From Owenia fusiformis (taxonomy: Eukaryota; Annelida; Polychaeta; Sabellida; Oweniidae), in contig CAIIXF020000002.1 in assembly GCA_903813345.2 (NCBI GenBank), forward strand, positions 15,818,467-15,882,466: a stretch of 64,000 nt of DNA. The letters are read 5' to 3'. Below, piece after piece: positions 5,746 through 64,000 of this stretch (the stretch's first letter is position 1; each line of letters opens with the position of its first letter). Below the pieces are notes generated by a model that ran no database searches, was not told where the DNA came from, and saw only the letters and a program-made list of their open reading frames with translations. The translations under genes were made by a program, and so were the position numbers.

Positions 5746-7403
5746 TCAGTCCCATGTGGCACCATCCTTCTTTTTAACTAAAAGATATGTTTTCATGTCA
5801 CCCTTTCCTTTAACAAAGATTTCTCCACGATATTCAAATTCAAATACATCTTCCATGATATTTTTTGTATCCTCTGTGACTTGAATCTTGCCCCTAGCGC
5901 CCGTAGAGTACATCCTCGAGGCTATATTCACAGTGTCCCCCCAAATATCATAATGCAGCTTTGTAGTACCTATAACACCTGCAGTCACATCACCGACATT
6001 GAACCCAATTGCCATCTCAAAATCAAAATTGAATATTGACTCATTGAACTGGTGAATGACCTCAAGCATGCCCAAGCAAAAGTCCATCAATTCGTACAAA
6101 TGCGCTTTCTCATTTTTGTTTTGTTCCCTGCATTCTGAATTCAGACCCCCAGCTGCCATGAAACAGCTGCCAATTGTTTTGATTTTTTCAATATCTTTGA
6201 ATCTTTCTTCATCAAACAAATCTTCAAAATCTGCTACCAGTTCATTAAGGACTCTATAGTATTCCTTCCCACCTTCGAACGACTCTTCATAGAATTCGCT
6301 AAAGTTGACGATGCTAGCAAATATAACTCCAACCTGACGATGATTCTTGGAGTACTTGGATGTGGTCTTCAAAGTTTCTGATAGGTATTCAGGAATAATG
6401 TTCAAAAGCAACCAATCACATTGGTCCTTCTCAACCTCCATTTGTCGCTTGTCGGCAGCTGCCTCAACATCACCATGGAAACTCAAGCGGTACGCGATTT
6501 CAAACTCACGATTGAGGAAACAGACCAATAGAAGCATGAGTACCATATCCAGGATAATCTCAAACCTGAGCACTGGGTGCCCCACCCGGGAGTACAGGCC
6601 TGGAGAAGGTGTGGTACTGGAGGTATTGTTGTACTCGCTGGCGTTGAATGGCTCATTGAAGACCACTATAGAAACTGTGGTCATTGCATTCTCTGGGCTG
6701 ATCTCACCACATATACCAACACTGAGGAGAATCAGCAACACTGCTCCGGCAATAATTGCCAATCCTGACTTCATCCATGATGAGAACATGGAAAAGTTGC
6801 AGAAATGCAACAATGATACCACGATGAGATATGCAAAGAACTTATCGGCATCATTATCCAACTCACATGAGAAGTTTGTGTAAACGGCTCCCGACGGCAA
6901 CGAGGCTATGACCACACCAACGATATGACGTGGATACCAGCTTGTAAAAAATGTCATGATTTTGCCAAACTCTGCTTCGCTATTGTCAATAAATATGTTC
7001 CTAATAAGGGGTATAAGTACAGCAATTTCCAGAATCATGCCGACACAGAAAAATGCAATCCATTGAGGTGTTGGGTGGAACATCATGAAACAGCACACTG
7101 ATATAATAACCATGACTAGAAAAGATATTGCCATATCAAACAATGCGCTGAATCTTGGTGAAGCAATTGTCTTCACAGTTTGGACATCTACTAGATAATG
7201 ATCACGATATTCCACTTCCTCCTCAGAACGTAGAAAATTCAACGTAAAGAGATTTATAGGTGGTTTGTAGAAGTAGTTGACTCCCATGATGTTTTCTTCA
7301 ATACATTTGGTGAGCTGGATGTCACTCTGGTCCCTGACTTGGCGAAACTTTGTCAGCGTCTCATTGATAGGAACTAGCATTGGGTCCATCTTCAAACCAC
7401 TCC
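5746..7403 (-). CDS. ADCY9: ADCY9 exon 6: second membrane block and C2a catalytic domain
   Basis: The exon encodes residues 640-1191. A conserved pre-membrane segment (NYFYKPPINLFTLNFL) is followed by about six hydrophobic segments. The extracellular loop between the last two contains potential N-glycosylation sites (NAS, NTS). The C2a domain has VIFASIVNFSEFYEE, IKTIGSCFMAAGGLN and YDIWGDTVNIASRM; N1132 and R1136 fit the transition-state-stabilising Asn and Arg of the family. The protein stops 20 residues after the VKGKG motif, so it lacks a long C2b tail. The stop codon is at 5748-5746. A candidate polyadenylation hexamer (AATAAA on the minus strand) lies at 5429-5424, about 320 bases downstream. 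The long open frame at 6347-6883 on the plus strand is an antisense shadow. Confidence 0.95.
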
Positions 7404-10400
7404 CTGGAAACAAATATGGAGAGAACATTAGAAAGGTGAGAAAACAAACATGTAAAAATACCATTTTGCAAAAAGTACATGTCCCTTTATAAATCTAGTG
7501 CCATGGGTAACTGGCTCAAATAAGAAGGTGCTTTCAACAAAAGTAGCAATACAATCATTTTGACATCTATCAAGAACAGTATCAAGTTAATACTGTAAGT
7601 CAATAGTATTTAAGTTAACCTAAAATCAAACTACAAGTACAAGTAAATTTTCAAACAAATTGTGATGTACATGTAATATTTTCGGACATACGCAAAAAGT
7701 GATATTTCAACAAAGTAGGCCACATTTAAATATTGTTATGTGCCAGGCTTAAAGTATTCACATGTCAAATATTAACAAAATCGCTCCACTTCTTTTCGAG
7801 TTATAGTAAAATACGTTAAAATGGCGGCCATTTTTAAAATGGCTACCTTCTACCAAAAGCGTTATTAGAAATAGACAGTGTGCCATGTTTATAGTATTCA
7901 CATGCCAAATATGAACAAAATCGCTCCACTACTTTTCGAGTTATAGTAAAATACGTTAAAATGGCGGCCATTTTTCAAAATTGTTTTCAAAATGGCCGCC
8001 TTCTACCAAAAGTGTCATAGGACAGTGTGCCATGCTTATAGTATTCACATACCAAATATGAACAAAATCGCTCCACTACTTTTCGAGTTATAGTAAAAAA
8101 TGGCGGCCATTTTTCAAATTTTTTTTCAAAATGGCCGCCTTCTCCCAAAAGTGTCATAGGACAGTGTGCCATGCTTACAGTATTCACATACCAAATATAC
8201 AAAATCGCTCCACTATTTTTCGAGTTATAGTAAAATGCGTTAAAATGGCGGCCATTTTTCAAAATGGCCGCCTTCTACCAAAAGTGTCATAGGACAGTGT
8301 GCCATGCTTATAGTATTCACATACCAAATATGAACAAAATCGCTCCACTACTTTTCGAGTTATAGTAAAATGTGTTAAAATGGCGGCCATTTTTAAAAAT
8401 GGCCGCCTTCTACCAAAAGTGTCTTAAGGCAGTGTGCAATGCTTATAGTATTCACATACCAAATATGAACAAAATCGCTCCACTATTTTTTGAGTTACAG
8501 CCAAAATCGTAAAAATGACGAGTAAAGGCCGCCATTTTTCAAGATGGCTGCCATTGGCTTCTTTAATATCTACATTTGTAGCATTATTAATGTCTTTTAT
8601 AATTTTTTTACATTTAAAACATATTGCTATTACAGTTTTACATATTGCACCTAAATTACTGTAAAATCGTCACTAAAATGGCCGCCATTTTGAAATGAGT
8701 GGCCATTTTGAAAATCGGCTTTCGAGCAGAACTTCTACCTCCATAGGGTATATGTGTACAAAATATGAACAAAATCGGTCCAACGGTATTTGAGTTATTG
8801 CCCGGACGGACGGACGTACGTACGGACGGACGGACGGACGGACGGACGGAGGGAGGCGTTCCCTATATCCCTCCGAACTTCGTTCGATGGGATAACAATC
8901 TGTTACAGATGTTGACACCCAGCTCAGGTGCAAGCTGAATGCCTGCTTAACAAATGGTGGATATAACAATATGTCACTTTTTCGTATAACATTAAACAAA
9001 GTATAGACACGTCGCAAATAGTTCGCACACAAATTGTTACACATTTTCGCTTTTAAACGAGACAGAATGTGACGTTTTTGAGAAAAAATCCTCCACATTT
9101 ACCTCTAAATCTCAAAATATTTAATACGAAAAACTCTGATATCTTATACATATTAACAATGTCTTAGGAGCATCATAAAACACAAATCAATTGATATTCT
9201 AGGTGAAATAAATATATGTGTTGCTATGTTTGAAAATAGGTGAATGGCCTAAATTCACCTATTTTAATGATTTTTGAAAACCTTTCATCCTCCCCTTTTC
9301 CACATACAGGAGAAAACACACATGTTTGAGAACAAAATCAACTATTTATTAATAAACTACAGTTTATGAGCAAAATAATCATGTATGATTTATTAGAAAT
9401 TGGTTTCAAATTTTTTGTTTAAGGTACACCTGAAAAGTTGAAGGTAACAAAAAATGAGCAAAAAAGGTCGCTGTCGACAGATTCTATTTTTCAAACTATA
9501 TGACGTCACAATATGGGACACTTACTAGAATTCATCCTTTGAAATAACACTTTCATCTACCTTTATCAAGACGAAAAAAGTATAATAGGCAAATATTGTT
9601 TGAGTTATGAGTGTTTAAAGATGGAAAATTATTCAAAATGTAACATGTCGACAGTGGATATTTGCCAGATTTTTGGGTAAAAAACTATTTTTTAGTTGTT
9701 TCATTTAAAATATCAATACAAGTGATGCTAAATTAATTAAATGTTCACTGTTTCAGTTTATAGTGGTTTTCTAGTTAAAGACATATTCAGTGATTTTATC
9801 AAGTTTTTCAAGTTGAGAGGTTTTAATGTACATAGCAGTATTTCTATTCCTTTAAACACAAAACAATATGCTGGCATATCTGAAAAGAAGCACAAATATT
9901 CAAAATTAATAAGGAAGTGGACTTGAATGCACTATTTAACAGAATATAAAAAATTGTTGCAATAAAGCGTCTTGTCCTCCAGTGAACCATTTTCATACCA
10001 ATGAAAGCGCTGTTGTCTTGACCTTTATTCTAATTTTATATGAATCATGTGACTCTAATGTGGCTATAAAGCAGGTTGCCATCTGCATCATATTAATTAC
10101 AAAGAAGATTAGCATTTAATCAGACAGGTATTTGCAAGAAGCATATACATAAAATAGGTAGTGAGATCATCTAGACAGCCAAGTGTCCAACTCTACAAAG
10201 CTGCTGAGAGAGCCACTGTTATGGAGGACAGCAAACAGCACATCATACTGGTGCATGGTTACCTCCTAAGAGGGCCAGGCTCAAACATTTACTCCTGTAA
10301 CTTGGCAAAGACATGGAAGGCTCAGGGACATGCTGTTACTGTGTATTGTCAGGACCCCCAGGCTAAGCTATACCCCTGGGTAGATGATTTCATTGGACCA

Positions 10401-13400
10401 AATGTAAGGAAATTCTTTTTTATATTATTGTAAATGTCGCACTGTACTTACCATATGATAATAAACTGCTTAGGCTCAAACATTATATGTATCATTCATA
10501 CCGTTATTCATTTTTAACACAGCATGAATATACATGTACTATATCGAACATTCCATAACAAAGTCACATTGAATCATGCCATCTATATTTTCCAAGGCCT
10601 CACCATTACAAATATGGCGTGGCAGGTCCAGTACATAACATACTTCACGACATTCATCACATTTCATCTTTAACATATTATAAAATTACTATTTTGAAAA
10701 TATCATCTGTATTAGGCTTTTATGAGATGCATGCCAAATTCTGAAATGTCTTGAAACTTTACAATGAGATTCCAAAAATAAGCATATTAACTATTAAAGA
10801 ATTTTGAGTGATTCCCCACTATGACGTCAATATAGTAAAATATGAGCCTTCTAAACTAGCACTAGGTAAGGTGGTAATAATTAGGTTTTTCAGATATTGC
10901 ATAGATAATTAGATATTTTCTGAAAGGGTTTCATGTTAGAGTTTGAGGTCACAATTATACATGCATATCAATATGGTAATTTTATAGGAACAGGTAATTG
11001 GGCATCTATTTCACTTGAACTCTAACTCACTGATGCGGTCAGGTTAACTTAGATTGCACATCATTTAGTTTATGTTTCCATTTAAAGATGGCACCCTTAT
11101 AATATCTCAATAAGAGAATTATGTTTGACACAAAGCTATATTAGAATTAAATCTATCAATTATTAAATTGTATGATACATCTTTCATGTTTTCTTGAGAA
11201 CATTCAATTTATTTCATAGGGCCTCAGGGTTCTAATATTACTTCTAAAATAATCACGAAAGCCTCTATTTAGTGACCAGCTTTACAGAAGAGTCAAATTA
11301 AATTCATCTACTGAATATTCCAAATACAAATATTTGCAGTGATGTCGAATTAATGGTGTTTGACTTAACAGTAATGTTATTTTACAAATATAACATATTT
11401 TGCTAATTGGCGCTTTGTTATTTTGTCAGGAGTGTCTCCCCGAAGCGAGGATCTCACTAGGCAAGGTGAGGGTGGTAGTGCCAGACATTGGGGGTCTGCT
11501 GCCTGTCTACAACTATGACAAATACCCTGGCTACACTGTCAAGACCATTCCTCAATGCACAACTGATGAAATTGAAGCACATATTAGGAAGATGTCTGAG
11601 GCTATACGTAGAGGCATCAACTTATGGGGGTGTGATCAAATAATAGCCAATCACGCACTGCTTTCTCCTGTCAATGTTAAACGAGCAGTTGAGGGCTTAA
11701 ATGTCCCATTTAAAATCAAAATCCATGGGAGTGCTTTAGTATTCACACTACAGCCATTCCCAAAGTTCAAACCTTATGCCATTGAAGCTTTCAGAGAATG
11801 TAGCCACATAATTGCAGGAACACATCATGTTGTTCAACAACTGAAAGGCATATTTGAAGATGATTATCTTCAACTCAATGATAAACTGATAATCATCCCA
11901 CCAGGCATGGACCCAGATTTATTCATCCCATCAACAAACATGCACGAGAGTTTGCAAGAATTCAGGGCAACAATAAAAAATCATATCCAAACTGAAGAGT
12001 ACAAAGGGAGAAATGCAGCTATTATTTCCTATCCTGCAGCTGAGAAAAACATCCACAATGAACTGAAAAAACTTGGAACTGGTTATAATATTCGGGTATG
12101 TGATTCTGATCTCTTGGAAAGAATTCCCGATTTACAACTGGAAGATCCCATAATTATATACTTTGGAATGATGATGCCATTCAAAGGTGTGGCTGAGATT
12201 CTGTTGTCATGGTTACAAGTAACAAAGAGATATCACAGAGCTAAATTAATTCTTGTAGGATTTGGTGAATACAGAGAACACCTGGAGACAATGATCTATG
12301 CACTTAAACATGATGATATAGCATTATTTGAATCAGCTGCTCTGAGCCCTAATGATCAGGGGGTTACCTTCTTGGAACAAGGGATTGATGTGAGGCAATA
12401 TTTTCCTCGTACTCTCAGCAATAAGGATGGTCGAAGCGTTCTCCAAACTTCACAGCTCAATAGACAAGGAAAAAACACCTGCGACAAGGAAACAAATGGG
12501 CATAATGGTGTTGATATTTTGGAAAAAATATTGGTGACTGGATATCTAAACCATGATGAGCTGCACTGGTTGCTGCCCCTAGCTGACATAGCAATCATGG
12601 CACCCAAAGGCCCAGAGGCATTTGGTAGGTACCACATACATTTTGGTAGGTATCACATATAATTTGGTAGGTACCCCATATATTTTGGTAAGTACCCCAT
12701 ACATTTTGGTAGGTACCCCATACATTTTGGTAGGTACCCCATATAATTTGGTAGGTACCCCATATATTTTGGTAAGTACCCCATACATTTTGGTAGGTAC
12801 CCCATACATTTTGGTAGGTACCACAATCCACATACATTTTGGGAGGTTCAAATTGATATGTTGACAGCCAATAGTTCAGATGCCATTGGAAGGTTGCATA
12901 CACATCATGGCAGCCCATTGTTCAGAGCATTTTGGCAGCCTTAAGATTTTAAATTTTGTCGAATTGATAAATGCATATAAAAAAATATTTTAATGTCAAT
13001 CGCGCAAAGGCATTACAGACATATTCAAATATAATGCATATAAAAACAGACTCAAGGCAAGAATTTAAAGCAATAAGCATCATTGGCATGTTGCTACATT
13101 GCAGGTATGGTGTCTGTAGAGGCCATGTCTGCAGGTGTGCTTCCCCTCCTGGCAGCCCATTCTGGTCTACTAGATGTACTGGATACAGTGAAACAACTGG
13201 ACCCTGAGCTGGAGGAACAAATGCATATCACAGCAGTAGCTGGGGGTCAATTCAAAGCTATGCATGGACAGCATCTAGTAGAGGTATACTACTGTTTTTT
13301 TTTTTTTTAAACAATAGGTTTATTTCATTGATATATTTTTCATGGCATAGTACACAATCATGCGGCAAATCGCCTTCTGGCATTTTATGTCCGCTTTCAA

Positions 13401-16400
13401 TTACAATGTTACATATAAATATACGAAAAATTCAAGAAAAATAAAACACACCCACTGTTTAGATGTGGCATGTTATAAATGAAGTGTACTGACGGGGACC
13501 TGCTGCAACATAGATGGGGCGACCAATTACACATAGGGGTTGAGTAAGTGGGGTCTAAGGTAGTCAGATTATGTACAACCATGCACAACCATTAACAGTT
13601 TTCTAAAAGAAATGTTGCTGTCAACTGAAATAGTTTGTCTAATTTATCATGGGTGAGTTCGGGATCACCAAAGAGATATAAATCAATTTTATCCTGTTGG
13701 GTTTTATAACGTGATATATCATCCACAATTAACTCAATGGCTTCATTGAATTGATGGAGTTTATTCATTCTCATGGGGCAGCTAAAAAATAAATGTCTAA
13801 AGGTCTCAGGGGACCCACACTCACAGTTTGGGGAGTCAACATTATTCCAGTTGTGAGATATCAATTGGGTCTTCAAAATAAGGTCGACTCTGGCTCTGTT
13901 GAGGTACATCTCTTGCCTGCGATTTAGAATATTAAGGGACACAGTAGATATAATCCCAGGGAACATTTCGATTCTTAGTCTCCTTTTAAAGGAGGCCAAT
14001 GAAGGAAGGGACTTCAGATAAGGCTGATCACGTTGTACATTGTTCCATATCTCGACCATCTTGTATATTGGTGATTTTCTGGGATAATTAATAGGCATGA
14101 TATAGTCTCTGTTAAAACGCGTATTTCTAATATTGACTCTTTTATAAGGAATGAATATGTCTGTTATATATGATGGAATGAGGGCATTGTCGACTTTATA
14201 CATAAGACTCTTAAAATGAAAATTTCTACGATCAAGTAAGCAAGACCAATTTAAAATTTTGAATACTTTACAGGCACTTGATCCTGACAGAGCTCCAGAC
14301 ACAATTAGACCAGCTTGGTACTGTAAACTACTAAGCTTTTTTAGGTCAATTTGGTTTGCACCATCATATAGAACATCACAGTAGTCAAAGAGTGACTGGA
14401 TATAGGCATTATACATGATATTGAGATGTTTGGACATCAGTCTTCCTTTCAGAGCTTTCATTGGATTAAGTGCTGTCTGGATCTTAGAGGCTAAATAGTT
14501 GATGTGAACTGATCCACATAGCTTATTGTCAAAGTAGTAGCCAAGATGTTTGTGGGTGTCAGTTCTTGTGATTGCGTGGCCATTTAACATAATTGGAGGA
14601 TAATTATTTGCATTATTATTTTTAGAAAAAATCAACTCTTTGCTTTTTTCTGGCTTAAATTCAAGTTTCCAGATGTCAGACCATTTTTCTACCTTTTGAA
14701 TATCATTTTGGAGTTGAATATGAGATAGGTTGTCATTTGGGCTTGTTGGCAAAAATATTGACGTGTCATCGGCGTATATGAAGCATTTTGAAGATAAAGT
14801 ATCAGGCAGGTCATTAATGTATATAAGGAAGAGGAGTGGCCCAAGGATACTTCCTTGAGGGACACTGCAGTTTATATAGTTGTCCGGGGATGTTTGAGAT
14901 GATTTACCATTTACTGTGACCTTTATTTTTCTATTTGAGAGGTATGAAATAATAAAATTCAAGAGCTTTCCTGAAAAGCCATATGCTTTCAGCTTATGTA
15001 TTAACAGATGGTGTGGTACCCTATCAAAAGCGGCCGAAATGTCCAAAAAGACCGACCTAGTATCGAAGCCATTACTAAAATTTGTCCAAATAAAATCATG
15101 AATCGCTAGAAGTTGGATTTCATTGCAATGACCCTTCAAAAATCCGGATTGATATTTGTAAAGTAGATTGTTTTCAATAAGGTGCTTGTACATTTTATCA
15201 TAGACTATCCTTTCAATGATTTTGGAAACAATGCTAAGGAGAGAGATAGGTCTGTAATTGTTAAGATTATTTTTGCTATCTTTTTATGTATAGGGCAAAC
15301 ATTCCCAAGTTTCCAAATTTGAGGAAAAGTGTTTGCCTGTAAAAGTTTATTGAATAAAATGTAGAGAGGAAATGAAATTGAATTTGAGCATATTTGGAGC
15401 ATTTTGATGGTGATTTCATCAGGGCCATTGGCCTTGGAAGGGTCAAGATTATTTATTATGTTAGTAATATCCTGTCTATCAAATGTAATATCACTTAACA
15501 GATTATCGCACCTCTGAGGAAATGGAGTGTCAAAGTGGTCAAAATTTTCATTTGAATGATTTTTTTCAACAAAGAAGTTAAGAAAGGCATCAGATTTCTC
15601 TTGACTAGAACTGAAGATTATGCCTGACTGTTCCAATGTCGGAATTTGACTATTAAATTTTTTGCCTAAAAGTTTTTTGATAAGTACCCAAAATTTGTCA
15701 TTGGCATGAGTCTCGCCATTCAATGAGTCAACCTGTTCATTTGTAAAATTTTCCTTGGTAGATATTACGAGATTTTTAACAACTTCAGCTTGGGCCTTAT
15801 AAGCCATATAGTGTTGCTCTGAGTTGCTTAACTTAAACTTCAAAAATAATTTTTTCTTTTTTTGAATAGCATGAGCAATTATCTCATTATACCAGGGTTT
15901 ATCGTTGGCTTTTACTTTTTTGAGTTTGCTTGGAATGTGCAATGTAAACAATGCCATCATTTTATTTGTAAACACTTCAGTCAAAATATTTACATCTTCA
16001 AACTGATTAAAAAATTCATTCCAGTCAATATCCTCTATGTCTTGATTAAGTGCTTCGATATTTGCTAAATTATATTTCCATACACGTTTAAGTTAAGTAT
16101 ACTACTGTGACAGATCATATCACAGAGTCACATTACAAATTATGTTTGGAAAGGAATAGAGAGAAACATGTTGGAAACAAACAAGCACTCAGTATTACAA
16201 CTATGGTTGAGACTAGAATACAGTTTTTTGAAATTAAGTTTTTAAGTCTATTTCGAAATACTACAATACTATTTTCTTCCAGTGCAAAGCTTAACATGTA
16301 CTGGTCATGGTTGAAGCAGCCGGTTCAGTTTGTTAATTCGGATTGAATTTCATAAATTTCACTAGATTAAGTTCCAGTTTTGATTTACTTTATTTTTCAA

Positions 16401-19400
16401 AATTTGCAGTGAATAGAATACTTGAATACGAAACAAAAAATAAGATAAAATACTTTTGTTTAGATTTGGTTTATATGATTTGATTGATGTTTCTAGGTTC
16501 TGCCTGGCAAGATCTGTACTGCACTGGAATTCCTCTACCCAGTGGAGCAGGGTGGTTTGAATGACCATACAAAGAGACACAGTGTTGGACGCCGCCTTAG
16601 AGACATTGCCACCAAAACATGGTCCTGGGATGGTATATGTAAAGCCTTGATAACCCAATGAGAACTTATTTTAACTTCATATTTTACTGGATGCTTTCAA
16701 AACGATGGGCTAGCATAAGAGGAAATGATTTGCACTGCTGTAATTACATTTCAATTAACACTCCATGGGATGGAGGATAGATGGTGCTGACCATTTTTCA
16801 AACACCCAGCACAATGTTTCACAATTGAGACCTTAAAAACAAAGTAAGAGAATCCAGTGAATGAAATGTTACTATTAGAACCAGGGTACCTTTTTCTGTT
16901 GTTTCATCCAGGGCAAGTTCGGCAGTATAGAGTCCACTTCCCCTTCTGTGCAGTAGGGCTGTTGGTGACATGCCATTCAGTGCCTCCTGCTGGAAAATAC
17001 AACACAAAAGATATATAAGGGTTATGCACTGGAAGGTTTTGGATACAATCTTTATCCCAAGTGTAAAGAGAAACTGCTCTACAAAGTTACAGCTCGACAA
17101 TACAACATTTCAAGTTATTTATGGATTAAGCCAAATACAGAAAATATTGTGCAGAGTCTGTATATCACAAGGCTTCAAATATGCTGTTGTAAATAGTTTT
17201 TCAACTAATATATGATTATCTTGACGTGTTAGACTTCAGGTAAACTAAACTATAAAAGTCTCCAAGTGTATAGTATACAGGGTGTTTCATAATGACCATC
17301 CCCCATCAATCACCAATGCTATAGATGGCATACCTCCATTGTTTGTTCAATTCTGGACTTATCGAAGCTAACTTTGATTTAGCTCATATCGCTACAAAAA
17401 GGTGCTCATTTGATCTATGGCATATAATCGAACAGCCACATTAATCTCTAAGAAATAAGCAGTGTACCTTGTTAAAAGGGTCTGCAGTAATCAGAAACAA
17501 AAGTGATCACATATTGGTAAAACACTCACGCCATCTTTAAACAATTTTCAAAAGAAAATACACATAACCAAGGCTCAGCTATTACCTATAGTAAATTAGT
17601 AATGTAACAATTATAGTATTTTATGGATGCTGAGGAAATATTTTAATGATATTTGAAAGAATTTAAAAAAAATATCTTAAACTACCCAGATAGCTATAAA
17701 TGATACAATGAATTATACATCTTCTTATCTTCTCTATATCAATTATAAATGCCAGTCATAAATTGACCAAATTAGGGTAATGGTGACAACAAAACATAAG
17801 TTCACAAATTACATTCCCAATGATCAACATGCCAGGCCAATGAGTCCAACATTCAATAAGCTTTTTTATGATATATAGATTATGGGGCCATGTGATCTAG
17901 GACTGGCTGTGGATTGGGGGGGATGTCATTATGAAACACCCTGTACATAGAATTAAAATAAAGTAAGTTTTGTTAACCTGTGGTTCAAGGTGATTTTTCA
18001 TCATGCCCTTCCTCAAGCTGTCCTTTCTCTCCAAATCCCCAGAATCCTAGAATAACAGAGGTTAACAATTATTGATATACAACAACAAATACATTTTCAA
18101 ACTTGATCAACTGTACACAACCCTAAGAGAAAACTTAAGATGTATTATGTTAAATAGATCAGTTTCATGTTTATGATGTAAAACTTCCATTCAGAAATAT
18201 CAATTATACGTATGTAGACTAGACATGTTCTTGATTTGAAATGAAGATCTTTGCCAATTTTCAAAGTACAGTGACCTCTAGAAGAGGAACACCTCTGTTA
18301 GTGGAACACTTTTCAGACTCTCAAGACCAACTGACTTAATGTTAAATGAACCTCTATAAGTGGAACACCTCCCAAGTGGAACATTTTTAGAGGTTCCAAA
18401 GGTGTTTCACGTAGACACATTTTGAAATTGACTGGCTACTACTAATTAATGTCTTTAATGCTAGAAACCAGGTTTAGCAATCTGGATACAATGTGTGAAC
18501 ATGATGTAATCACTGTTGACAACAAGCAAATAACCCATGTCATTGAATCCCACTACTTGAGAGAGGTTTATTGCAAGGTAGTGAATGTATCAATGGACCT
18601 ACCGATGGAATTTCTACAGCAACTTCACCAGACTCTGCAACTGGTTCTTTCTCTTTTTTATGTTTTGGCTCAGTAGGGGGTGTGTCTGTAACTGATCGCA
18701 GATCCTGATTGGAGGAATCTTGGCGATTCTTACGCCCTGTGATGAAGTATGTCTTTAAATCTGGAAAGGACACAGTCGTCAAGATTAATGCACAACACTA
18801 TGTCCAATTTTAGCCATATAATATTAATGTTATACCCAAATTTAGCTCCCATATTGTACCCAAGTTGAGCTGCAATGTTATAATCAGTCAACCTGTTATG
18901 TTCTTAACTGCAATGCTATATCCATACACATGTGCAATGTTATTCAAATGCAGCTACAATGCAATAGTAGCTATACCCAGACACATCTACAATGTTATTC
19001 AAATGCAGCTACGATGCAATAGTAGACATACCCAGACACATCTGCAATGTTATTCAAATGCAGCTACGATGCAATAGTAGACATACCCAGACACATCTGC
19101 AATGTTATTCAAATGCAGCTACAATGCAATAGTAGCTATACCCAGACACATCTGCAATGTTATTCAAATGCAGCTACAATGCAATTGTAGCTATACCCAG
19201 GCATATCTGCAATGTTATTCAAATGCAGCTATGATGCTATAGTAGCTATACTGCAATGTTATTCAAATGCAGCTACAATGCAATTGTAGCTATACCCAGG
19301 CACATCTGCAATGTTATTCAAATGCAGCTATGATGCTATAGTAGCTATACTGCAATGTTATTCAAATGCAGCTACAATGCAATTGTAGCTATACCCAGGC

Positions 19401-22400
19401 ACATCTGCAATGTTATTCAAATGCAGCTATGATGCTATAGTAGCTATACTGCAATGTTATTCAAATGCAGCTACAATGCAATTGTAGCTATACCCAGGCA
19501 CATCTGCAATGTTATTCAAATGCAGCTATGATGCTATAGTAGCTATACTGCAATGTTATTCAAATGCAGCTATGATGCTATAGTAGCTATACTGCAATGT
19601 TATTCAAATGCAGCTACAATGCAATTGTAGCTATACCCAGGCACACCTGTTACAATACACCCAGGTTGAACTCTTACATCATGCAATGTTAGATATCAGT
19701 GTAAGTCCAAGTTATGTCAGCTTTACAGTCACATCTTTGTATGGATAGTACCTGCTCAGTGGGTTCATATCAACATTGACATGCTTACAAGCCACACTGG
19801 ATATAATCCAGAATAATTGACTATTTTGGGTCTGCATTATAATTAAATATTGATGAACAATTTGACAGAATTTGACATATATGACAGAATATGGCATTTA
19901 TATGACATTTATATTGCGTTTATATTTATATGGTGAGGAAAGCTTATTACATTCATCGAATATTCACCTCATGAATTTAGCAATCCTGAATGATAGGTTC
20001 ATATGATCTATATGTTCCTATAATGTATCACCACAGCGTCATCATTTAATGAATGATTAGACATTATAAACTTATTATGCTTGTAAAATGTGGAAAAAAT
20101 ATTTACCTGTCTTTTCCTGCACATGCTGGACTTTGTAAGACTGTGTGGCTGTATCATAGTCTTCTGTCAAAACTTTGTGCTTGCGGTTATCTGAAAATAG
20201 AGAAGAATAAAGCTGAATATGAAAATGTCTCTAAGTATGTTTATATACAAGGCATTAACTTGGAAAATGCCACTGCCTGCCATTTGTCATTGATGCCAAA
20301 TGCTGAACACAAACGCCCAAACACTATCCACAAAAAGTTAGAGACAATAAAAAATATGTCACCACTTGTGGCGGTGACGATAATAAGTCATATGTACTGT
20401 ACTGGGAGGTTTTGGACACAGAGCATATCCTAAAGGGATAAATCCCATATCTTAAACTGACTTTGCATAACAGATGTATTCCATAGCTACCGTATTTCAA
20501 CAAATATCCTATCTAAGTTTGAAGAATTTAAAAAACAGATAAAAAAACTATGAATTATGTGGATAACAAAACCTAATAAGCTGCCACCTCAACATATATT
20601 TTTTTCATTACATTATTGGAAATAAATAAATGAATTTCGAAACGAAACCGCCATTGACTTTATTTTGACATATTTGATATATCACTTGATATGCATATAT
20701 TTATAGATACAAGGTCCGGGTACTTTATATTATTCAGAATTGGGAGACATGTTTAATTTATAATGTTCTATGAAATAAGCTCGCATTTCTTCATATCTGC
20801 AAGGGAGGCACATATGTTTTTTTTTATCTGTCATGGAAAAGGTTTTAAATGAGGAATAAGGCGGGTGTCAAATAAGCAAGGCATTATTGATTGGACCCGT
20901 TGTCTCTCTATAACAACGAGATTAGTCTCTAGTTACAAGAAGCTTAGGTAGCAGGAGACATGCACATCTTTAATCTCGCATCCCCACGGTAATATTGTCA
21001 TAGTCCAGCGATGCTCCCTGCATATTAATAGTTACAAATGAAAATCAGTGTCGTTATTATGTCAATAAAAGCCCAGTGCTCTCCCCAGGATTTTTTCTCA
21101 AGTGGGTGCAAATTTCTCATTTTCACAATTCACACTGAAACTCTCACAATTGCAAGCACTCTCATTTTCAAGTGGGTGCAAGCCTGTTTTTTAAAATCTG
21201 AGGTGGGTGCTGCGCCCACTTGCTCAATGCTGGGGATATCATTGAAGCCCCTGAAAAGGATTATCTATTGTTCAGTATTTATCCTAGAATATTAGAACTA
21301 TGAGGGGAAATAAAGATGTATCAGTATAATGACTGGTCTTAATCTCTGAGATTTTTTAGAACAAAGAAGAGATTAGTGACAATCCTTGCATCTGAGTTAA
21401 TTGTAATCCATCTTCCCAGTAGTTCAATGACTATTAAGGATGGAGAAAGGTTTTGGACTGAACCTATTCTTTAGCTGCTGCTTCTAGGCTCTAAGGTGAT
21501 ATTCCCATAAATAAAGGACAATAGAAAACTTCTACATGTTTGTCTTATAATTGAATCCTCGTAGATTATGTATTTCATGATACTTTTTGAGATAATACAC
21601 CCACTTGAGATACTAAGTTAGCCATCAGCAACCATAATGTCATTGACAATATGACAACCAGAGTTTAGTAGTTGCAAGAGCATCAATTGAATACCCGCAG
21701 CTGAGATGATTTCAATAAGAAAAATTATAAAAGGTCACTGAAATAATCAAATATGACTCTAGATCCCACTCTAGACTACCCTGCGTGCAGAGTCTAGTTA
21801 AACTACACTCTGCCTAGTAGAGACCATATTACAGTTTAGTAGCCCCGCCCCCACGACAGGTAACCGTGACAGTTTGGGAAATAAATCACTTCTGACCTAA
21901 GAGCTGACCTTTCTTTCACTAATCAGCGAGCTTTAAGAAACATACGCCAAATGCGTTCTAATTAAATATGCGCATGTCATTGGTCAATTCCGGGCTCAGC
22001 GATGACGTCAGAAGGAATGACCATATATAGAACGTCGGTCAAATTTGGCCGACGAACACTGATTGGCGCGGTGAGTTCACAGGTTCATTTTAGTTTGAAA
22101 GAGTGATGACGAGTCTCTCTTTTAAGAAGTGAAGTCAAACGAATGCAAAGGGTAACTCTAGACCTGGCTTAGCTCCAGATCAAGACCAGATCTTTGTGCA
22201 TTTCCATTGTGAATTCAGTTTTGAATTAATATATAATTGCATGGTTTAATTCATTTTAATGACTGCTTACATTCCAATATAAAGGAGTGGTATCGATGTG
22301 GTGAACTTTTTGAACATGCGCTTCTCTTAAACCAGTCATCAAAACATTCTGAAAATTTTACACATCGTCAATTTAATGGTCATCTTTTGGATGGTAACAT

Positions 22401-27424: not shown

Positions 27425-30400
27425 GGTCTCCTTTTTATGTTTCTTGAATTAACATGAAATTTTCAGGAATTATTGTCAATTCCAATGTGCATAAGGTAAT
27501 TTATCTATAAAGTTAGTATAAAAGCTTAAAAATGTCCGGGTCTATGGCTGTCATGGCAACATAGTATTCTGTACCCTAGAGCATTTTAATAATTAAACAT
27601 CATGTTAATCATTCAATCCAACACATAATCTTTATCTGATAAAAATAATATATGAATATTTAATTTTCTGGTAACCCAATTTAAAAACCAGAACAACGGC
27701 AACGCCAAAGCGTAGCGAATCCCATCGAACATTTTTCAAAAGGGGCACCTTCTACCAAAAGTGTCATTAGACAGTGTGCCATGCTTATAATATTCACATA
27801 TCAAATATGAACAAAATCGCTCTACTACTTTTCGAGTTATAGTAAAATACGTTAAAATGGTGGCCATTTTGAAAAATGGCCGCCTTCTACCAAAAGTCTC
27901 ATTAGACAGTGTGCCATGCTTATAGGGGTTCACGTACCAAATATGAACATAATCGCTCCACTACTTTTCGAGTTATAGTAAAATAAGTTAAAATGGCAGC
28001 CATTTTTCAAAATGTCCGCCATTTTTCAAAATGGCCACCTTCTACCAAAAAGTGTCATTAGACAGTGTACCATGCTTACAGTATTCACATACCAAATATG
28101 AACAAAATCGCTCCACTACTTTTCAAGTTATAGTAAAATACATTAAAATGGCGGCCATTTTGAAAAATTACCGCCCTCTACCAAAAGTGTCATTAGACAG
28201 TGTGCCATGCTTATACGTATTAACATACCAAATATGAACAAAATCGCTCCACTACTTTTCGAGTTTTAGTAAAATAAGTTAAAATGTCGGCCATTTTTCA
28301 AAATGTCCGCCATTTTTCAAAATGGCCGCCTTCTACCAAAAGTGTCATTAGACAGTGTGCCATGCTTATAGTATTCACATACCAAATATGAACAAAATCG
28401 CTCCACTACTTTCGAGTTACAGCAAAAATCGTAAAATAACGAGTAAAGGACACCATTTTTCAAGATGGCTGCCATGTGCTTTTTTAATATCTACATTTCT
28501 AGCTTTATTAATGTCCTATATAATTTTTTTTACATTTAAAACATATTGCTATTACAGTTTTACATATTGCACCTAAATTACTGTAAAATCTGCAGTAAAA
28601 TGGCCGCCATTTTTAAATGAGTGGCCATTTTGAAAATCGGCTTTCGAGCAGAACTTCTACCCCCATAGGGTATATGTGTACAAAATATGAATAAAATCGG
28701 GCCAACGGTATTTGAGTTATTGCCCGGACGGACGGACGGACGGACGTACGTACGGACGGACGGACGTACGTACGGACGGACGGACGTACGTACGGACGGA
28801 CGTACATACGGACGGACGGAGGCGTTCCCTATATCCCTCCGAACTTCGTTCGATGGGATAATTAAGCCAATGAAAGAAAACATCCAAAATGAGTTTATCA
28901 GCTCTATGTTACTTGAATCCTTGATTAATTTAGGAAGGGCTTTCGACTACAGACAGTTCAGGAGGAACATTGTTAATTTTGTGAAGAGGAAAATGCTTAT
29001 TTAAGAACTTTTGAAATAAACAGGATGTTCCCAGATATTCTTTTTCATAAAATATAGAATTCTGTATGTACTAGTATGGAGACTTAAAATGTTAAAATGT
29101 TTTTGTTAAAGATGATGGCAGATAAAAAACTAATATGCCTTTTATTAAAGACCTAGTTGTAAAATAACACAGAAATGATACGACATCCTTGCAGCATTCA
29201 TTTTGTTATTATTACTGGAATATAAATCATAGATTTCAGCCAGTCAATGCTCATACATGTACTGTTTTATCGAATACAGTATTATAACAATATTGTAAGA
29301 AGAATAACAATATTGATAATAAAGGTATGTAGTTATTCAAAATTCAAGTTATTCAGTGATTTGATATTGAAAAATTGCCAGAGAAAGATAATAATGAGAT
29401 ACATCCTTTAAAGTAGAAAATGTTTTATTTGTTTTTTCAGTCTACGATTTCGTCTGTCGCACCTCGCCAAATGGAAATGAAACTGCTGAGGCGAAAATGA
29501 GCTAAAACAACTTGCCACGCGTGTCTAGAACAAAAGACCATTATTTTGGCGACTATAGTATCAATACTTACTTGAAATATCCCGACCATTGAACAAAATA
29601 AACCACTCTTTCGTGACGTGAACTCCTGATTTGTTTTCATAATTTTTTTACATTACGCGGGTCGGTTCAATTCAATGCTTCAATTATCAGACCCCCTCTG
29701 GGAGTCATTGCTACGCAGGCAATCTGCGCTGGTTTCTCCCCTCTGGTTCAGTATTTGATTGGTTCAAATATTATGCTGAAATATTCAATGGTTTCGAGAT
29801 TTCCATAATACCTACGCTATCAGGGGTATCGCGAAACCTTATTGATTGACAGATATCGCGTAGACACGACGTGTGACTTCAGGCTGAATGACCAATCAAA
29901 ACGTTATCAGGTTGAGCTGCCTAAACAAAACAAACTTCCCATCTATGACTTGAAATTCAATGATCTGATCCAGTGTTTCGTTAGAGTTACAATATATTAT
30001 GTAATTAAATGTACATTGGAAGGTTAGAGTCATTAATATAAATTAAATCATGCGATTCAATGTTGATTTAAAACGGATTTCGCGATGAAAATGCACGAAG
30101 ACCGAGTCCAATGTAGCGGGTCATGTTGTCGTCGATCGGTGATTGAATCAGCCTACATGTTCAGCGATCGTTTCAACGTTTATTGTTGAAATCTTCTCAC
30201 CTTTGGTTATCCAATCGATGCCCCGGCATCCACTAAACTCTCATTGATATTTATCTGATAAAATATTTGTATTTTCATGATGAATTCGTGCTCAGATTCA
30301 GGTGAAAAGTGTACTTGTTTTTGACCGTGCATAATAATGAGCTAACGCTACAGGACATCAACAAACTGTCGGTAAAGCACATGGCTTTCTCTTTGGTACA

Positions 30401-33400: not shown

Positions 33401-36400
33401 TTCTTAGTGGTAACAAAAATGAGGGATACCATTACCATGATTGATAACCATGTAGTTTTTTCTATTTGCTTCATATTTCAGTCTTAAAACAAGGCATTAA
33501 CAAGCAAAATATCACCACCTGCCATTTGCTAGGTGCTGACTGCCGACCACCATCCACAAAAATGAAAACTATAACAATATGTCACCACTTTTGGTGGTAA
33601 CATAAAAACAATTTGATATTTTGTTTGCAAAATTATCAAATAAAAATTAGGAAATTATCAAATAAAAATAGTTATTGTCTCGCATATAAAAGTTAATTTA
33701 CAATGAAAAGATAACTGGAATAATTTCAAACATGTACTTAGAATGTATTTCTGAGCTCATTTCATGTTTTCTCTTGATTTGTCAGTGTCCATTAGGACCA
33801 CCATATACAACAGTGACATCCTCAGCTTCTGGTGTATGGAGAAAAAGCTGTGGAGTTCATTGTTCAGATTATTAAACTTGGCAAACATGAGCCTAGACTC
33901 TCCCAAAGGTTAAATAGAAATGATTTCCTGAACATAACCGTTCAGCAAATAATGGTATAAATACTGGCAACAACTATCCACAAAATAATGACCCCATGGG
34001 AATATTTTTAGAATTACAAATTATTCTGGCAAATGTTTCAGTGTTAAGGTAAGAAACCTTGAACAAATGTTTCAGTGTTAAAGTAAGAAACCTTGAACAT
34101 AGTAAGGTCAGGAAGTTGTTCTCTCTCCACTAATTGAAGGTCACATTCAGTCCTTCAAAGAGACAAGTGTTCATTGCACAACTATTCCACATTTCTAATA
34201 CCATGTATAAAAGTCTGACTTGGACTTTGAGAGTCTGGAACTGGAAATCTTAAGGCAATACTCATACTGGAATTTCAGGATAGTAGTCATACTGTTAAAC
34301 CAGTATTCTTCAGTCATGGAATACCTGATGGATCAAGATGGGCAACAGTCAGTCATGAATGTTCTAGATAATGCAACACTTTAATTAGCCTGCCCAATAT
34401 GGATTCCCATGGCAATCCCTTCATTGAGGAAAAGAGACAAAATGTAACGTGACTACTACAACTAGTTTCAATACAAGAACATCAATACCCTGGGCACAAC
34501 ACTTTAGTCTGCTCTGTAAAAGTGTATGATGGTTAGATGTACCATTGTAATCCGTCACATATTTAGGCAGTGATCTCCCCAGCATTAAAGCAAGTGGGCG
34601 CATCTCCCCTGAGATTTTGAAAATAGGCTCGCACCCACCTGAAAATCTACTTGCACCCACTTGAAAATCATGAAAAATTGGCATAGTTTGACCAATTTTT
34701 GTCTGAATTATGAAAATGAGAATTTCGCACACACCTGGGAAAAAATCCTGGGGAGATCAATCCATAATAGGGCTAAGACTTCTTCGAGGAAAGTGCAATC
34801 TAAATATTAGAAAGGGAAGTGCTCTCCCAAGAATCAGCAATAACTTACTTTTCCAAGACAGATATGTTTCACACTTGAAACAACAACTCAGTCAAAATTA
34901 CCTTGAGCTTGTTATATTTAGAATCTAGAACACCCATCAATAAACTTACATGAACATGTAACTTTTAATATTCTGGAGATGAATGTAAGTTTTGATAGGT
35001 CAGGACAATATCTGCAAATTTTGTGATTTAAGGCAATCAAAGTATCATTTATATGCGACTGCTAGTGATGAGACAAATACTAAGGCACTTCTATGTTCTA
35101 ATTTTCTTAGTTTTTCACAAATGTTTACCATATTGTAAAAGGGCATGAAAAACAAACATTTATGTCCAAGGCTTATACCTTAAAGTTGAAAATGCACTAT
35201 ATCTATGATATGTGACCTATTTGTGACCATCTACACTATTTCACAATATGACTTGTGACCATCTAATAACGCTCTATTTCACAATATGGCATTTGACCAT
35301 CTAATAACTCTCTATTTCACATTATGATATTTGACCATACCTCTATTTCATAATATGGCATGTGACCGTCTAATAACTCTCTATTTCACATTATGATATT
35401 TGACCATCCCTCTATTTCACAATATGACATGTGACCATCTAATAAGTCTCTATTTCACAATATGGCATGTGACCATCTAATAACTCTCTATTTCACATTT
35501 TGATATTTGACCATCCCGCTATTTCACAATATGACATGTGACCATCTAATAAGTCTCTAATTCACAATATGATATTTGACCATCCCTCTATTTCACAATA
35601 TGACATGTGACCATCTAACAAGTCTCTATTTCACAATATGGCATGTGACCATCTAATAACTCTCTATTTCACATTATGATATTTGACCATCCCTCTATTT
35701 CACAATATGACATGTGACCATCTAATAAGTCTCTAATTCACAATATGATATTTGACCATCCCTCTATTTCACAATATGACATGTGACCATCTAACAAGTC
35801 TCTATTTCACAATATGGCATGTGACCATCTAATAACTCTCTATTTCACAATATGACATGTGACCATCTAATAAGTCTCTAATTCACAATATGATATTTGA
35901 CCATCCCTCTATTTCACAATATGACATGTGACCATCTAACAAGTCTCTATTTCACAATATGTCATGTGACCATCCCTCTATTTCACAATATGACATGTGA
36001 CCATCTAACAAGTCTCTATTTCACAATATGGCATGTGACCATCTAATAACTCTCTATTTCACAATATGACATGTGACCATCTAATAAGTCTCTAATTCAC
36101 AATATGATATTTGACCATCCCTCTATTTCACAATATGACATGTGACCATCTAACAAGTCTCTATTTCACAATATGTCATGTGACTAACTAATAATCCAAG
36201 CATTATTTTTTATTCATTCTAAAATAGTACATACATCAAGCAAACAAGGCAATGATCACAAACATGAGAAACATAATAGAGAATTAGAGTAATAACCATT
36301 CATTGTAGAGAGATATGGTATAAAGATGAATGACATGATAGGGCTAATTGGATATTGATCCATTCTAGCCAGACCATTTCACAACTCTCCCTGCTTGTAT

Positions 36401-39400
36401 GGAAATGAGAGGACATGTTCAGAAAGGGTTACCATGATTTTATATTGTATGTATTGAGAAGTACAAAACATTAATATGAGAAAATGGAAAACATAATAAT
36501 TGCACTTGTGTGTCTGTATGAGATAATGATTAGAGACCAATCCCAGAATTTCTATTTAGCTGTTCTGAGTCTGGATACATTCCTCATCTGAGATGTCTAT
36601 TGTGGTGCCTAGATTGTAATGTATCAAATGAATGAATGCAATTCCATATACAATCCTACCTAAATGCTTTATTAGGGTTTTCTTTACAATGCTGTATAAC
36701 ACCCCATGCAGACGGATCGCCAAAAAGTACATTCATATGATGTGAGACTCGACATTCACCAGGAAAGTAGAAACATTTTGTCACCCATGAAGCAAATTAA
36801 TTTTTACTGCTTAATAAATGGTCAAGGACAGTAACATTAAGTTCTATAAGCATGAGAATAGCATGACGTCTTGATATTTCAAGGTAACTCGTTCAAAAGT
36901 GATCGAAATTACGATGTTAAGATAAAGCAGTGATGAAATATTTGTTGATTTCTTTGAAAAACTAAGATATATACAACACATATAGACTTTTTTAAAACAG
37001 AAAAAACATGTATAAAATGTAAGGCCTGCAGGTCAGATTTTCCCTGGTAGCATTACATTGGTCTCATACATGTCATACAATTAATTTTTGCAATACACCT
37101 ATCATTCGAACTTATGATCGGACATAAGTATGATGTTACTTTATAAATATTACATTGAAGTACACATCATATTTATGTCCGATCATAAGTTAAGCAGTAA
37201 AAAATTAATTTGCATCATGGCTGACAAAATGTTTCTACTTTCCTGGTGAATGTCGAGTCTCACATCATATAAATACAATTTTAGGCGATCTGTCTGATGG
37301 GATGTATTAGGTTTTTCTGTGCAAAACTTTGAGCCAAAACAACAGGCCAGAGCACAATACATGTACATGTACAGGGTGATCACTAAGTTCTGGGAATTGG
37401 TCTGTCATTTCAATATTTTTCAACCAATTCAGTTGAAACTTCCAGCAAATGTACATTGTATAATTCTGAATTGACAGACAATGTTTCATGGACATATTAC
37501 TTTTACAATTTATTTTATTGCAATTATAAAAAAAGTAAAAGTGGTCAGCGGGTCAGCAAATTTTGACTGACGTTAATTTGAAAAATATCCTGCTAAAACA
37601 TATTCATCTTGCCTAGATCGTTGGTTCAAACTTATTGTACTAGAGGCAGAACAGTACTCTTGAAGTCATTTATTCAGAAGTATTCTTCATTGCTGGTAGG
37701 ATCATTTCATTTATAATGATTTCCATAGGCCTGAATGCCTATGTATTGTTGTCAAACCTACTGTAGTCCATAAAGTTGCTTTCCAGTCCTCCCCTTGGTA
37801 TCCCTTTAAAATTTGCTCAAGCTGTTGAGATCAGTCCCTCATTGGAACCAAACTTATGATGATCTCTATATGAAGCTTCAACAGTCAAATTTAGTGAACC
37901 TAATGGTGGTTCATCTGGTGAACATTACATGGTGAATATGGGGCATGAACAACTTGTGTGAACCTTAATTCTTCAAGACTAGTATGGGCAATTTGAGGAA
38001 TGGGAAGAAAAATAGTCACAATGGAAGATAACTCCCCGCTATTTTGAGTCATGATTGTGAATTTGAGAGTCTGACCAATGATAAGAAAATTGAGCAAAGT
38101 GGACTCTTATATCACAATACAGATGTTACTTTAAAAACTAAACTTAGAAATATTTGAAAACATAAAAAATCACAGAAATTTCTCTACCAAATAGGTATTA
38201 ATTAACCATACTTTTGGATCAAGTAAAATAAAAATGAATTCAAGTTTTTCTTGACCCGCTACGCCATTTGTCATGTTGCTATAGTAACAATAATTATCCA
38301 TTGTGACATCATATGACAATGAAACTGTTTTATCCAACCCAAAACTATATTCTCCATTTACCTTGAAAATTTCAAGTAGATTGGTTGAAAAATAATGAAA
38401 TGACAGATAAATTCCCAGAACTTAGTGATCACCCTGTATTTATGATTAATATAAGATGATCATAATAAGGAGTAAAGGCACATGTATATCAGAAATATCT
38501 TTGTCTTCGATCAAAGGAATTCTCAAAGATGATGAGAGGATGAGGATAAGTTTTTTGAGATTTAGTAGAGATTGGATGGTTTAGATATGACCGCGAAGCA
38601 AATAAAATAAAATTCACACAGATTTGCACAATATAGAGTATTACTGATACGATATTGGTAGTTCATTATTCCAATGGATGAGTTCGTGTTCCCCAGAATT
38701 TTCCTCAATTAAGTGTATGCAAAAATATCATTTGCACATTACTGACAAACATTGATCAAAGCAATCTAATTTTTTATGAATTTTCTCGTTTTCAAAAGTG
38801 CAACAATCCAATTTTTCATGAATTTTCCAATTTTCAAAAGTACAAAGTAAAAGTAGGCCTTTTTTCAAAATCTTAATTGGGGAGCATCCACTTGCTTCAA
38901 TTCTGGGGAAATCACTGTGTTAGTTTTCTAGAATGATGATGCACCTACCTAAAATGGGTTCTCCTTCTTCCACCTCATAGATGTCCTTGCAGAATGCATA
39001 TGTACACTCGGATATGTGCACTCGTCCTGGTTTGCCAGATGACTCCATAAGATTTGCCATTGTTACATCGTTGGACCATACATCAAACTTAAATCTGCGT
39101 GTGCCGACAAGTCCACACAGTACTGTGCCAGTGTGAACACCTACTCTCATATTCACTTCTTCATTATTATCTTCATCAAATTGTTGGATTGCTTTAATCA
39201 TTCCAATGCCCATTTCGACGCAGCATTTGGCATGATCAGCTTTAGGTTCAGGGCAGCCAGACACACAATAGTAACAATCACCAAGTGTGCTGATTTTCTC
39301 GCAACCACTCTTAGTACACAGTACATCAAATCGTCCAAAAAGATCATTCAAAAGTGCGACTAGATGTGCTGCAGTCTTATTGGAGCTCATTTTCGTGAAT

Positions 39401-62889: not shown

Positions 62890-64000
62890 ATAAATCAACT
62901 AGAAAAACAGCAACTCCACGGAGTAGCAAATCCCACCGAACAAAACATATTTAGATTATTAGTGGCCATCTTGAAAAATCCTTCTTGAACGCTTGTTTGT
63001 CCCTAAGCATCACCATATAAAATGTAAACCATATCCATAAATTAAAATTTGAGTTATCAAAGATTACATTCTTTTTTACTAAAAATGGGGGCCAATTCTG
63101 CAGTCATTTTGAAAATCTTTCTCGAACAGAGCTATAGTGTCCCTAGGTATCAGCATATAAAATTTGAATTAAGAAAAATGGCAACCATTTTGAAATTCAG
63201 CTGCCATTTTGAAAATTCTTCCTCGAACAGAGCTACTGTGTCCCTACTGTGTTCGCTGGTATTAGAGTTATCAAAATTTTATGTTTTTTTTTATGAAATA
63301 TGGCCACCATTTTGAAATTCAGTGGCCATCTTGAAAAATCATTTTTGAACAAAGCAACTGTGTCCCTAGCAATCACCATATAAAATTTGAACCAAATCCG
63401 TTCACTGGTATTTGAGTTATCAAAGATTATGTTTTTTTAACGAAAAATTGCCGTCATATTGAAATAAAGTGGCCATCTTAAAAATTCTTTGTTGAACATA
63501 GCAACTGTGTCCCTAGGCATCATCATATAAAATTTGAACCAAATCTGTTCACTTGTATATGAGTTATCAAAGATTACGTTTTTTACGAAAATTGGCCGCC
63601 ATCTTGAAATTCAACCGCCATCTTGAAAATTATTTCTTGAACAGAGCTACTGTGTCCCTAGGCATAATCATATAAAATTTCAACCAAATCTGTTCACTGG
63701 TATTTAAGTTATCAAAGATTACGTTTTTTACGAAAAATTGCCGCCATTTTAAAATTAAGCGGCCATCTTGAAAATTTTTTGTCGAACATAGCTACTGTGT
63801 CCCTAAGCATCATCACATAAAATTTGAACCAAATCCGTTCACTGGTATTTGAGTTATCAAAGATTACATATTTTTACGAAAAATGGCCGCCATTTTGAAA
63901 TTAAGCGGCCATCTTGAAAATTTCTTTTTGTGCAAAACTACATAGTCCCTAGGCATCAGCATATAAAATTTGAACCAAATCCGTCAACTTATATTTGAGT
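62890..64000. repeat. Related composite repeat with ~145 bp units, running off the window
   Basis: The start GTAGCAAATCCCACCGAAC matches the left end of the 27,700 element. Units contain TGTGTCCCTAGGCATCATC, ATATAAAATTTGAACCAAAT, GTATTTGAGTTATCAAAGAT and GGCCGCCAT. Unit starts near 63,358, 63,505, 63,648, 63,796 and 63,940 give a period near 145 bp. The right end is not in the window. Confidence 0.85.

What the first reader, a model, noticed from the sequence alone, without database searches (positions are those of the whole stretch)
12615..12840. A minisatellite built from a splice donor: ten tandem 5' splice sites at one exon end
The 21 bp array starts on the exact donor of exon 2 of the GT4 gene, inside the codon that completes the catalytic E-x7-E motif. 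Each of about ten units repeats TTTGGTAGGT or TTTGGTAAGT, so the intron begins with a row of near-equivalent donors. The period is a multiple of three. The second donor would insert exactly seven residues (RYHIHFG) between E457 and E465; donors beyond 12660 bring in an in-frame stop. Array length could therefore tune productive against truncated transcript.
Basis: partly seen in the sequence, partly recalled or inferred. Interest (0 to 1): 0.8.

Follow-up and report, generated by a model that had tools for sequence, protein, structure and literature searches.

The report
Minisatellite repeating an exon's splice donor
In an unnamed, animal-like genome a 21-letter stretch holding a gene's splice signal has been copied about ten times at the end of one exon, a kind of repeat already described in humans, which probably leaves one useful transcript and some broken ones.

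Summary
A 21-bp array (12621-12822, 9.6 units) begins 4 nt inside exon 2 of a four-exon GT4-type glycosyltransferase gene. Ten units carry a donor, with near-equal predicted U1 pairing. Homology supports donor 1 (exon end 12624) as the productive one. Donor 2 puts RYHIHFG inside the catalytic E-x7-E motif, which I expect to be inactivating, and donors 3-10 give a stop after residue 471. So 'productive' most likely means donor 1 only.

That array length tunes output is untested: no transcripts, alleles or whole genome are held. The simplest account is a tandem duplication across a donor, tolerated because the first copy keeps the exon intact. Tandem repeats cover 11.6% of the window, so an array on a donor is unremarkable under random placement, but mildly unusual if arrays avoid coding sequence. 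Two more donors here are duplicated by other routes: a 43-bp tandem duplication and a retrotransposon target-site duplication.

The kind is known: the human IFI6 (6-16/G1P3) minisatellite 'provides multiple splice donor sites' (Turri et al. 1995; not held, seen as citations and one paper's one-line summary). Verdict: real, new member of a known kind, modest interest.

The parts
10221..10403 (+). GT4-like gene, coding part of exon 1 (ATG to donor AAT|GTAAGG)
   Evidence: joined reading frame; Glyco_transf_4 (PF13439) match starts at residue 20 of the joined protein
11430..12624 (+). GT4-like gene, exon 2; its last 4 nt (TTTG, 12621-12624) are the first 4 nt of the array
   Evidence: PF00534 24.4 bits alone, 52.8 bits when joined to exon 3
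12621..12822 (+). 21-bp minisatellite, 9.6 units, consensus TTTGGTAGGTACCCCATACAT; ten donors with exon ends at 12624, 12645, 12666, 12687, 12708, 12729, 12750, 12771, 12792, 12813
   Evidence: TRF; units and frames; U1 pairing
12642..12809 (+). higher-order repeat: units 2-5 (12642-12725) and units 6-9 (12726-12809) are 82/84 identical, a block duplication inside the array
12660..12662 (+). in-frame TAA in unit 2, reached by transcripts that use donors 3-10
   Evidence: a second TAA in frame lies in unit 6
12823..12851 (+). decayed right end: insertion in unit 10, then TTTTGGGAGGT, where the donor GT has become GG
   Evidence: sequence
13105..13283 (+). GT4-like gene, exon 3 (acceptor TTGCAG|GTATGG), completes G460 and carries E465
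16497..16661 (+). GT4-like gene, exon 4 with the stop codon

Best explanation
A short tandem duplication that spanned the end of exon 2 and the start of intron 2 expanded into a minisatellite (single units first, later a four-unit block copy). Each unit carries a usable-looking 5' splice site. The first donor makes the working glycosyltransferase. The copies inside the intron are decoys that the spliceosome may use at some level, giving a +7-residue protein that is probably inactive (donor 2) or a message with a premature stop that nonsense-mediated decay would be expected to remove (donors 3-10). The array is tolerated because the upstream copy keeps exon and donor intact; it need not have a regulatory role. 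Shown: anatomy, frames, stop, pairing energies, block duplication. Inferred: origin order, real use of the downstream donors, decay, inactivity of the +7 form.
For: Array, units and frames. Donor 1 gives a gapless GT4 motif: the joined protein raises PF00534 from 24.4 bits (exon 2 alone) to 52.8, and all 9 printed alignments (8 distinct solved sequences, of three kinds: sucrose-phosphate-synthase-like, tetrahydrobiopterin glucosyltransferase, GlgA glycogen synthase including fusion proteins) run across the exon 2/3 junction without a gap there. Donor 2 lowers PF00534 to 43.2 bits. Near-equal U1 pairing of ten donors. Block duplication 82/84. GTAGGT is an ordinary donor here: two exons that I assign to a nearby adenylate cyclase gene end in |GTAGGT. 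No notable RNA fold would hide the donors: z -0.45, 59 of 200 shuffles fold as well. In a second gene of the window a donor is also duplicated in tandem with its first copy coding.
Against: No transcript evidence at all, so use of donors 2-10 is a prediction. Any 7-residue insertion lowers a profile score, so one search does not prove inactivity. If arrays must stay almost out of coding sequence (at most 4 nt), placing the window's arrays at random covers a donor in only 3.4% of trials and two in 0.06%, which leaves room for something beyond chance.
Confidence: 0.6

Rival explanations
1. The array is inert: donor 1 is used exclusively (first good donor, helped by exon signals or by an hnRNP A1-like factor that binds the UAGG in each GTAGGT unit and pushes choice to the exon-side donor), and the rest is passive intron.
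For: Eight of ten units carry UAGG inside GTAGGT (that this is an hnRNP A1 core motif is recalled). A paper's passage states that hnRNP A1 activates the intron-distal 5' splice site (PMC5585400).
Against: Downstream donors pair with U1 as well as or better than donor 1. In the IFI6 case two downstream repeat units are reported as used (PMC4526556 introduction). In the DOK7 case the intron-proximal of two competing donors is preferred.
Confidence: 0.2
2. Length-tuned attenuator: donors compete about equally, so the productive share falls as units are added (about 1 in 10 at this allele if choice were uniform), and unit-number alleles set enzyme output.
For: Ten near-equal donors, eight of which lead to a stop. 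The 82/84 block copy shows that the array has changed length in jumps. Alternative 5' splice site choice that lowers mRNA abundance exists as a principle (PMC4222953, title and start of abstract only).
Against: No expression or allele data. A uniform choice would cost about 90% of the message, which selection should resist. Length mutation alone does not make a regulator.
Confidence: 0.1
3. Donor 2 makes a second functional isoform with seven extra residues (RYHIHFG) near the nucleotide-sugar site.
For: It is in frame and stop-free, and donor 2 has the best predicted U1 pairing of the ten, -10.7.
Against: The insertion falls between the two glutamates of E-x7-E, where none of the 9 printed alignments has a gap, and the profile score drops by 9.6 bits.
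Confidence: 0.05
4. The unit count is partly an assembly artefact (collapse or expansion of a short repeat).
For: The 84-bp block is repeated at 82/84, a pattern that assembly errors can also make.
Against: At about 200 bp the array is shorter than long reads, and units differ from each other. No reads were available to test it.
Confidence: 0.05

Closest known systems
Human IFI6 (6-16, G1P3) exon 2 minisatellite (Turri, Cuin and Porter 1995, NAR 23:1854; PMC306954)
   Same: [quoted passage not shown] another paper says two downstream repeat units are used as donors, giving three mRNA species (PMC4526556 introduction).
   Different: There use is reported; here it is only predicted. Unit size (12 bp, recalled) differs from 21 bp. 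Recalled: its downstream isoforms are full-length proteins with +4 and +8 residues; here only donor 2 stays open and donors 3-10 hit a stop. Host, gene and sequence are unrelated as far as I can tell (not tested by alignment).
Tandem GYNGYN donors (Hiller et al. 2006, cited in PMC4336493; RBM10 exon 10)
   Same: Two near-identical donors at one exon end that compete for U1 and give in-frame variants (PMC4336493 passages).
   Different: Only two donors 3 nt apart, not a minisatellite; nothing there expands by repeat mutation.
Competing 5' splice sites with frame-breaking choice, DOK7 intron 4 (PMC5585400)
   Same: Two nearby 5' splice sites, one giving the working protein and the other a truncated one (passages).
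   Different: Two unlike donors 11 nt apart, conserved in mammals and regulated by SRSF1; no repeat array.
Intron gain by tandem genomic duplication (PMC4974935, listing only)
   Same: Tandem duplication that includes splice-site sequence (title and start of abstract).
   Different: There a duplication creates a new intron; here an existing donor is multiplied and no intron is gained.

Membership tests
Donor-supplying minisatellite (IFI6 type) | Tandem array straddles the end of an exon and the start of the intron | tested here: met
   array 12621-12822, exon end 12624
Donor-supplying minisatellite (IFI6 type) | Each unit carries a sequence that fits the 5' splice site consensus | tested here: met
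   ten units, U1 duplex -10.2 to -10.7; 10 of the window's 18 best + strand GTs
Donor-supplying minisatellite (IFI6 type) | Unit length a multiple of three, so that downstream donors keep frame | tested here: met
   period 21, frame kept; but the stop in unit 2 closes the frame for donors 3-10. That IFI6 has this feature is recalled (12-bp unit)
Donor-supplying minisatellite (IFI6 type) | Downstream units are really used as donors in transcripts | not testable with these tools
   no RNA data; no genome held for the window
Donor-supplying minisatellite (IFI6 type) | Unit number varies among individuals | not testable with these tools
   one sequence only; the block duplication shows past length change, not present variation
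GT4 glycosyltransferase (host gene) | Pfam GT4 domains above the curated cut-off | tested here: met
   PF00534 52.8 bits (cut-off 26.4), PF13692 37.1 (27), PF13439 31.2 (28.5)
GT4 glycosyltransferase (host gene) | E-x7-E catalytic motif intact in the joined protein | tested here: met
   E457 and E465 with donor 1; broken to E-x14-E with donor 2

The most novel reading that the evidence does not exclude
The minisatellite is a heritable splice attenuator: the number of decoy donors sets what share of transcripts reach the one productive junction, so that unit-number alleles act as a dial on enzyme level in nature. Three duplicated donors in one 64-kb window would then be examples of a broader way in which this repeat-rich genome makes and tests decoy donors.
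Probability: 0.1. Interest if true: 0.55.

Novelty: new member of a known kind. Interest (0 to 1): 0.3.

Why it matters
If downstream donors are used, this is a natural titration of competing identical 5' splice sites: ten copies at fixed 21-nt spacing, with a clean readout (normal, +7 or truncated protein). It could test how the spliceosome chooses among equal donors, and whether decoy number changes gene output. If they are not used, it shows how easily a duplicated donor is tolerated when the upstream copy stays intact. Either way the kind was described three decades ago for IFI6, so the gain is a second and cleaner example rather than a new principle.

Tried and rejected
RNA structure that hides or exposes donors: the array plus flanks folds no better than shuffles (z -0.45; 59 of 200 shuffles as good). 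Rejected.

A dispersed repeat or mobile element as source of the unit: only one 3-mismatch match outside the array, at 15676, among 11 matches in the window. Not supported within the window; the rest of the genome could not be searched.

Selection keeping the donor part of the unit: among units 1-9 the variable positions are 8, 12, 14, 19 and 21 of 21, so one of the ten donor-side positions and four of the eleven others vary. With a block duplication inside the array these are too few independent changes to argue from.

Prokaryotic relatives of the protein for a deeper motif alignment: the scan of genome contigs matched 7 stretches, none a relative by tblastn.

The DDX3Y/MSY2 minisatellite as precedent: from the passages seen it is a promoter and transcription-start case, not a donor array (PMC3039753). 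Rejected. Literature searches for other donor arrays: (9 of 10 allowed). From their listings I recognised no donor array other than IFI6; the listings were capped, and many listed papers were not opened.

Chance estimates: a first version used 13 donors with one placed a base off and one left out; it gave a rotation mean of 1.46 with P(2 or more) 0.45, and random placement 1.40 and 0.42. The corrected version with 14 donors is. The overlap limits of 43 and 4 nt were chosen after seeing the data, and the coding map is approximate and incomplete.

Full report
The observation. TRF reports one array at 12621-12822: period 21, 9.6 copies, 91% matches, score 327. The nine clean units and the partial tenth are printed. 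The array starts with TTTG, the last four bases of exon 2, followed at once by GTAGGT; the last exonic base is 12624. Eight of ten donors read GTAGGT and two (units 4 and 8) GTAAGT. At the right end the array decays: unit 10 has an insertion of 7 nt, and the next unit-like stretch (TTTTGGGAGGT) has lost the GT.

The host gene. Four exons join into an open frame of 573 aa: 10221-10403, 11430-12624, 13105-13283, 16497-16661. The product carries GT4 domains: PF00534 52.8 bits, PF13692 37.1, PF13439 31.2, all above their curated cut-offs; PF20706 at 21.2 is below its cut-off. Exon 2 alone gives PF00534 only 24.4 bits, below the cut-off of 26.4, so joining exon 3 through donor 1 restores the motif. 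The NCBIfam matches are weak and far below cut-off, so the substrate is unknown.

Which donor is productive. With donor 1 the motif reads PEAFGMVSVEAMSAG, with glutamates at 457 and 465. Against solved structures by sequence, 7 distinct sequences matched the full protein at E up to 0.1 and 49 matched the 76-residue motif stretch at E up to 10. Alignments were printed for 4 and 5 of them (8 distinct sequences), and none has a gap at the exon 2/3 junction; some have a gap a few residues away. Donor 2 puts RYHIHFG between the two glutamates and lowers PF00534 to 43.2 bits. Any insertion would lower the score, so this agrees with inactivity but does not prove it. Donors 3-10 all run into the TAA at 12660-12662 and end at 471 aa, before E465. 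Exon junctions lie downstream of that stop, so nonsense-mediated decay is expected from the usual rule (recalled, not tested).

Donor strength. Predicted pairing with the U1 5' end (sequence recalled) is -10.2 for seven of the ten donors, -10.5 for units 4 and 8 and -10.7 for unit 2. Across 14 donors that I could place in the window the range is -4.8 to -13.2, so the array donors belong to the stronger ones, and the other two donors of this gene are much weaker (-4.8, -5.8). Of 3130 GTs on the + strand, 18 pair at -10.2 or better; ten are the array and 8 lie elsewhere.

How the array grew. Units four apart are most alike (mean 20.4 of 21 identical, against 18.7 to 19.1 for distances 1, 2, 3 and 5), and units 2-5 match units 6-9 at 82 of 84 positions. 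So a four-unit block was copied after the single units existed. This shows past length change; it does not show present variation. The order of steps is inferred.

Chance. The window is rich in tandem repeats: 31 merged arrays cover 11.6%. Two of 14 identified donors lie wholly inside an array. Rotating the arrays over the window gives a mean of 1.57 and 2 or more in 49% of rotations. If arrays may overlap coding sequence by at most 43 nt, the mean is 0.24, with one or more in 22% and two or more in 2.4% of trials; with at most 4 nt it is 0.034, 3.4% and 0.06%. So the coincidence is ordinary under blind placement and unusual if arrays must avoid exons. Birth in place by duplication across a donor would explain it, since the upstream copy keeps the exon intact, but two cases are too few and the limits were set after the fact.

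Other duplicated donors in the window. On the minus strand an exon of what I take for a JIP3/JIP4 gene (name recalled; the joined piece had no Pfam match) ends in CAG|GTAAGTGC, and a 43-bp tandem copy repeats exon end and donor (51332-51419). Use of the second copy shifts the frame into stops. Both donors pair at -13.2. Read from the alignment, the two differences inside the coding part of the copies fall at third codon positions and are synonymous in the first copy's frame. Third, a non-LTR-like element (RVT_1, 112.6 bits) sits in intron 3 of the GT4-like gene, flanked by a 12-nt direct repeat (13284-13295 and 16097-16108) whose first copy begins exactly at the exon 3 donor. Its target-site duplication has thus copied that donor too.

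What is known. [quoted passage not shown] The paper is not held; I saw it in reference lists, in an in-text mention (PMC3618361), and in a one-line summary that two downstream repeat units serve as donors and give three mRNA species (PMC4526556 introduction). The present case has the same anatomy. It differs in unit length, in the stop that closes the frame after donor 2, and in lacking any evidence of use. For choice between competing donors, passages of PMC5585400 state that SRSF1 favours the intron-proximal and hnRNP A1 the intron-distal site, so either outcome is possible here.

Verdict. The mechanism offered is possible but untested and narrower than proposed, because only donor 1 is likely to be productive. 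I rate it a new member of a known kind, interest 0.3. The whole genome and transcripts, which would decide it, are not held.

Noticed in passing
51332-51419 (minus strand): Second tandem-duplicated splice donor: a 43-bp unit spanning the end of a JIP3/JIP4-like exon and its donor CAG|GTAAGTGC, repeated twice; using the second donor shifts the frame into stops. Gene name recalled; no Pfam match.
   Followed up: partly
13284-13295 and 16097-16108: A 12-nt direct repeat flanks a reverse-transcriptase element (minus strand) in intron 3 of the GT4-like gene and starts exactly at the exon 3 donor, so the target-site duplication has copied a splice donor.
   Followed up: partly
5749-40470 (minus strand) around 10221-16661 (plus strand): The GT4-like gene lies on the opposite strand between two exons with adenylate/guanylate cyclase domains (38923-40470, 200 bits; 5749-7494, 180 bits). 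With small exons that I assign by eye at 16.9-20.2 kb it appears nested in an intron of an adenylate cyclase gene (type 9-like, recalled).
   Followed up: partly
10221-16661: The GT4-like protein found no relative in the scan of bacterial and archaeal genomes by its own short peptides and matches NCBIfam and Pfam only as a generic GT4; its substrate is unknown.
   Followed up: no
35224-36194, 43044-44066, 18915-19649, 63251-64000, 7984-8517, 27730-28427: Many other tandem arrays; TRF lists 51 rows, which merge to 31 arrays covering 11.6% of the window. Arrays at 7984, 27730 and 63251 have AAATGGCCGCC-like stretches in common.
   Followed up: no
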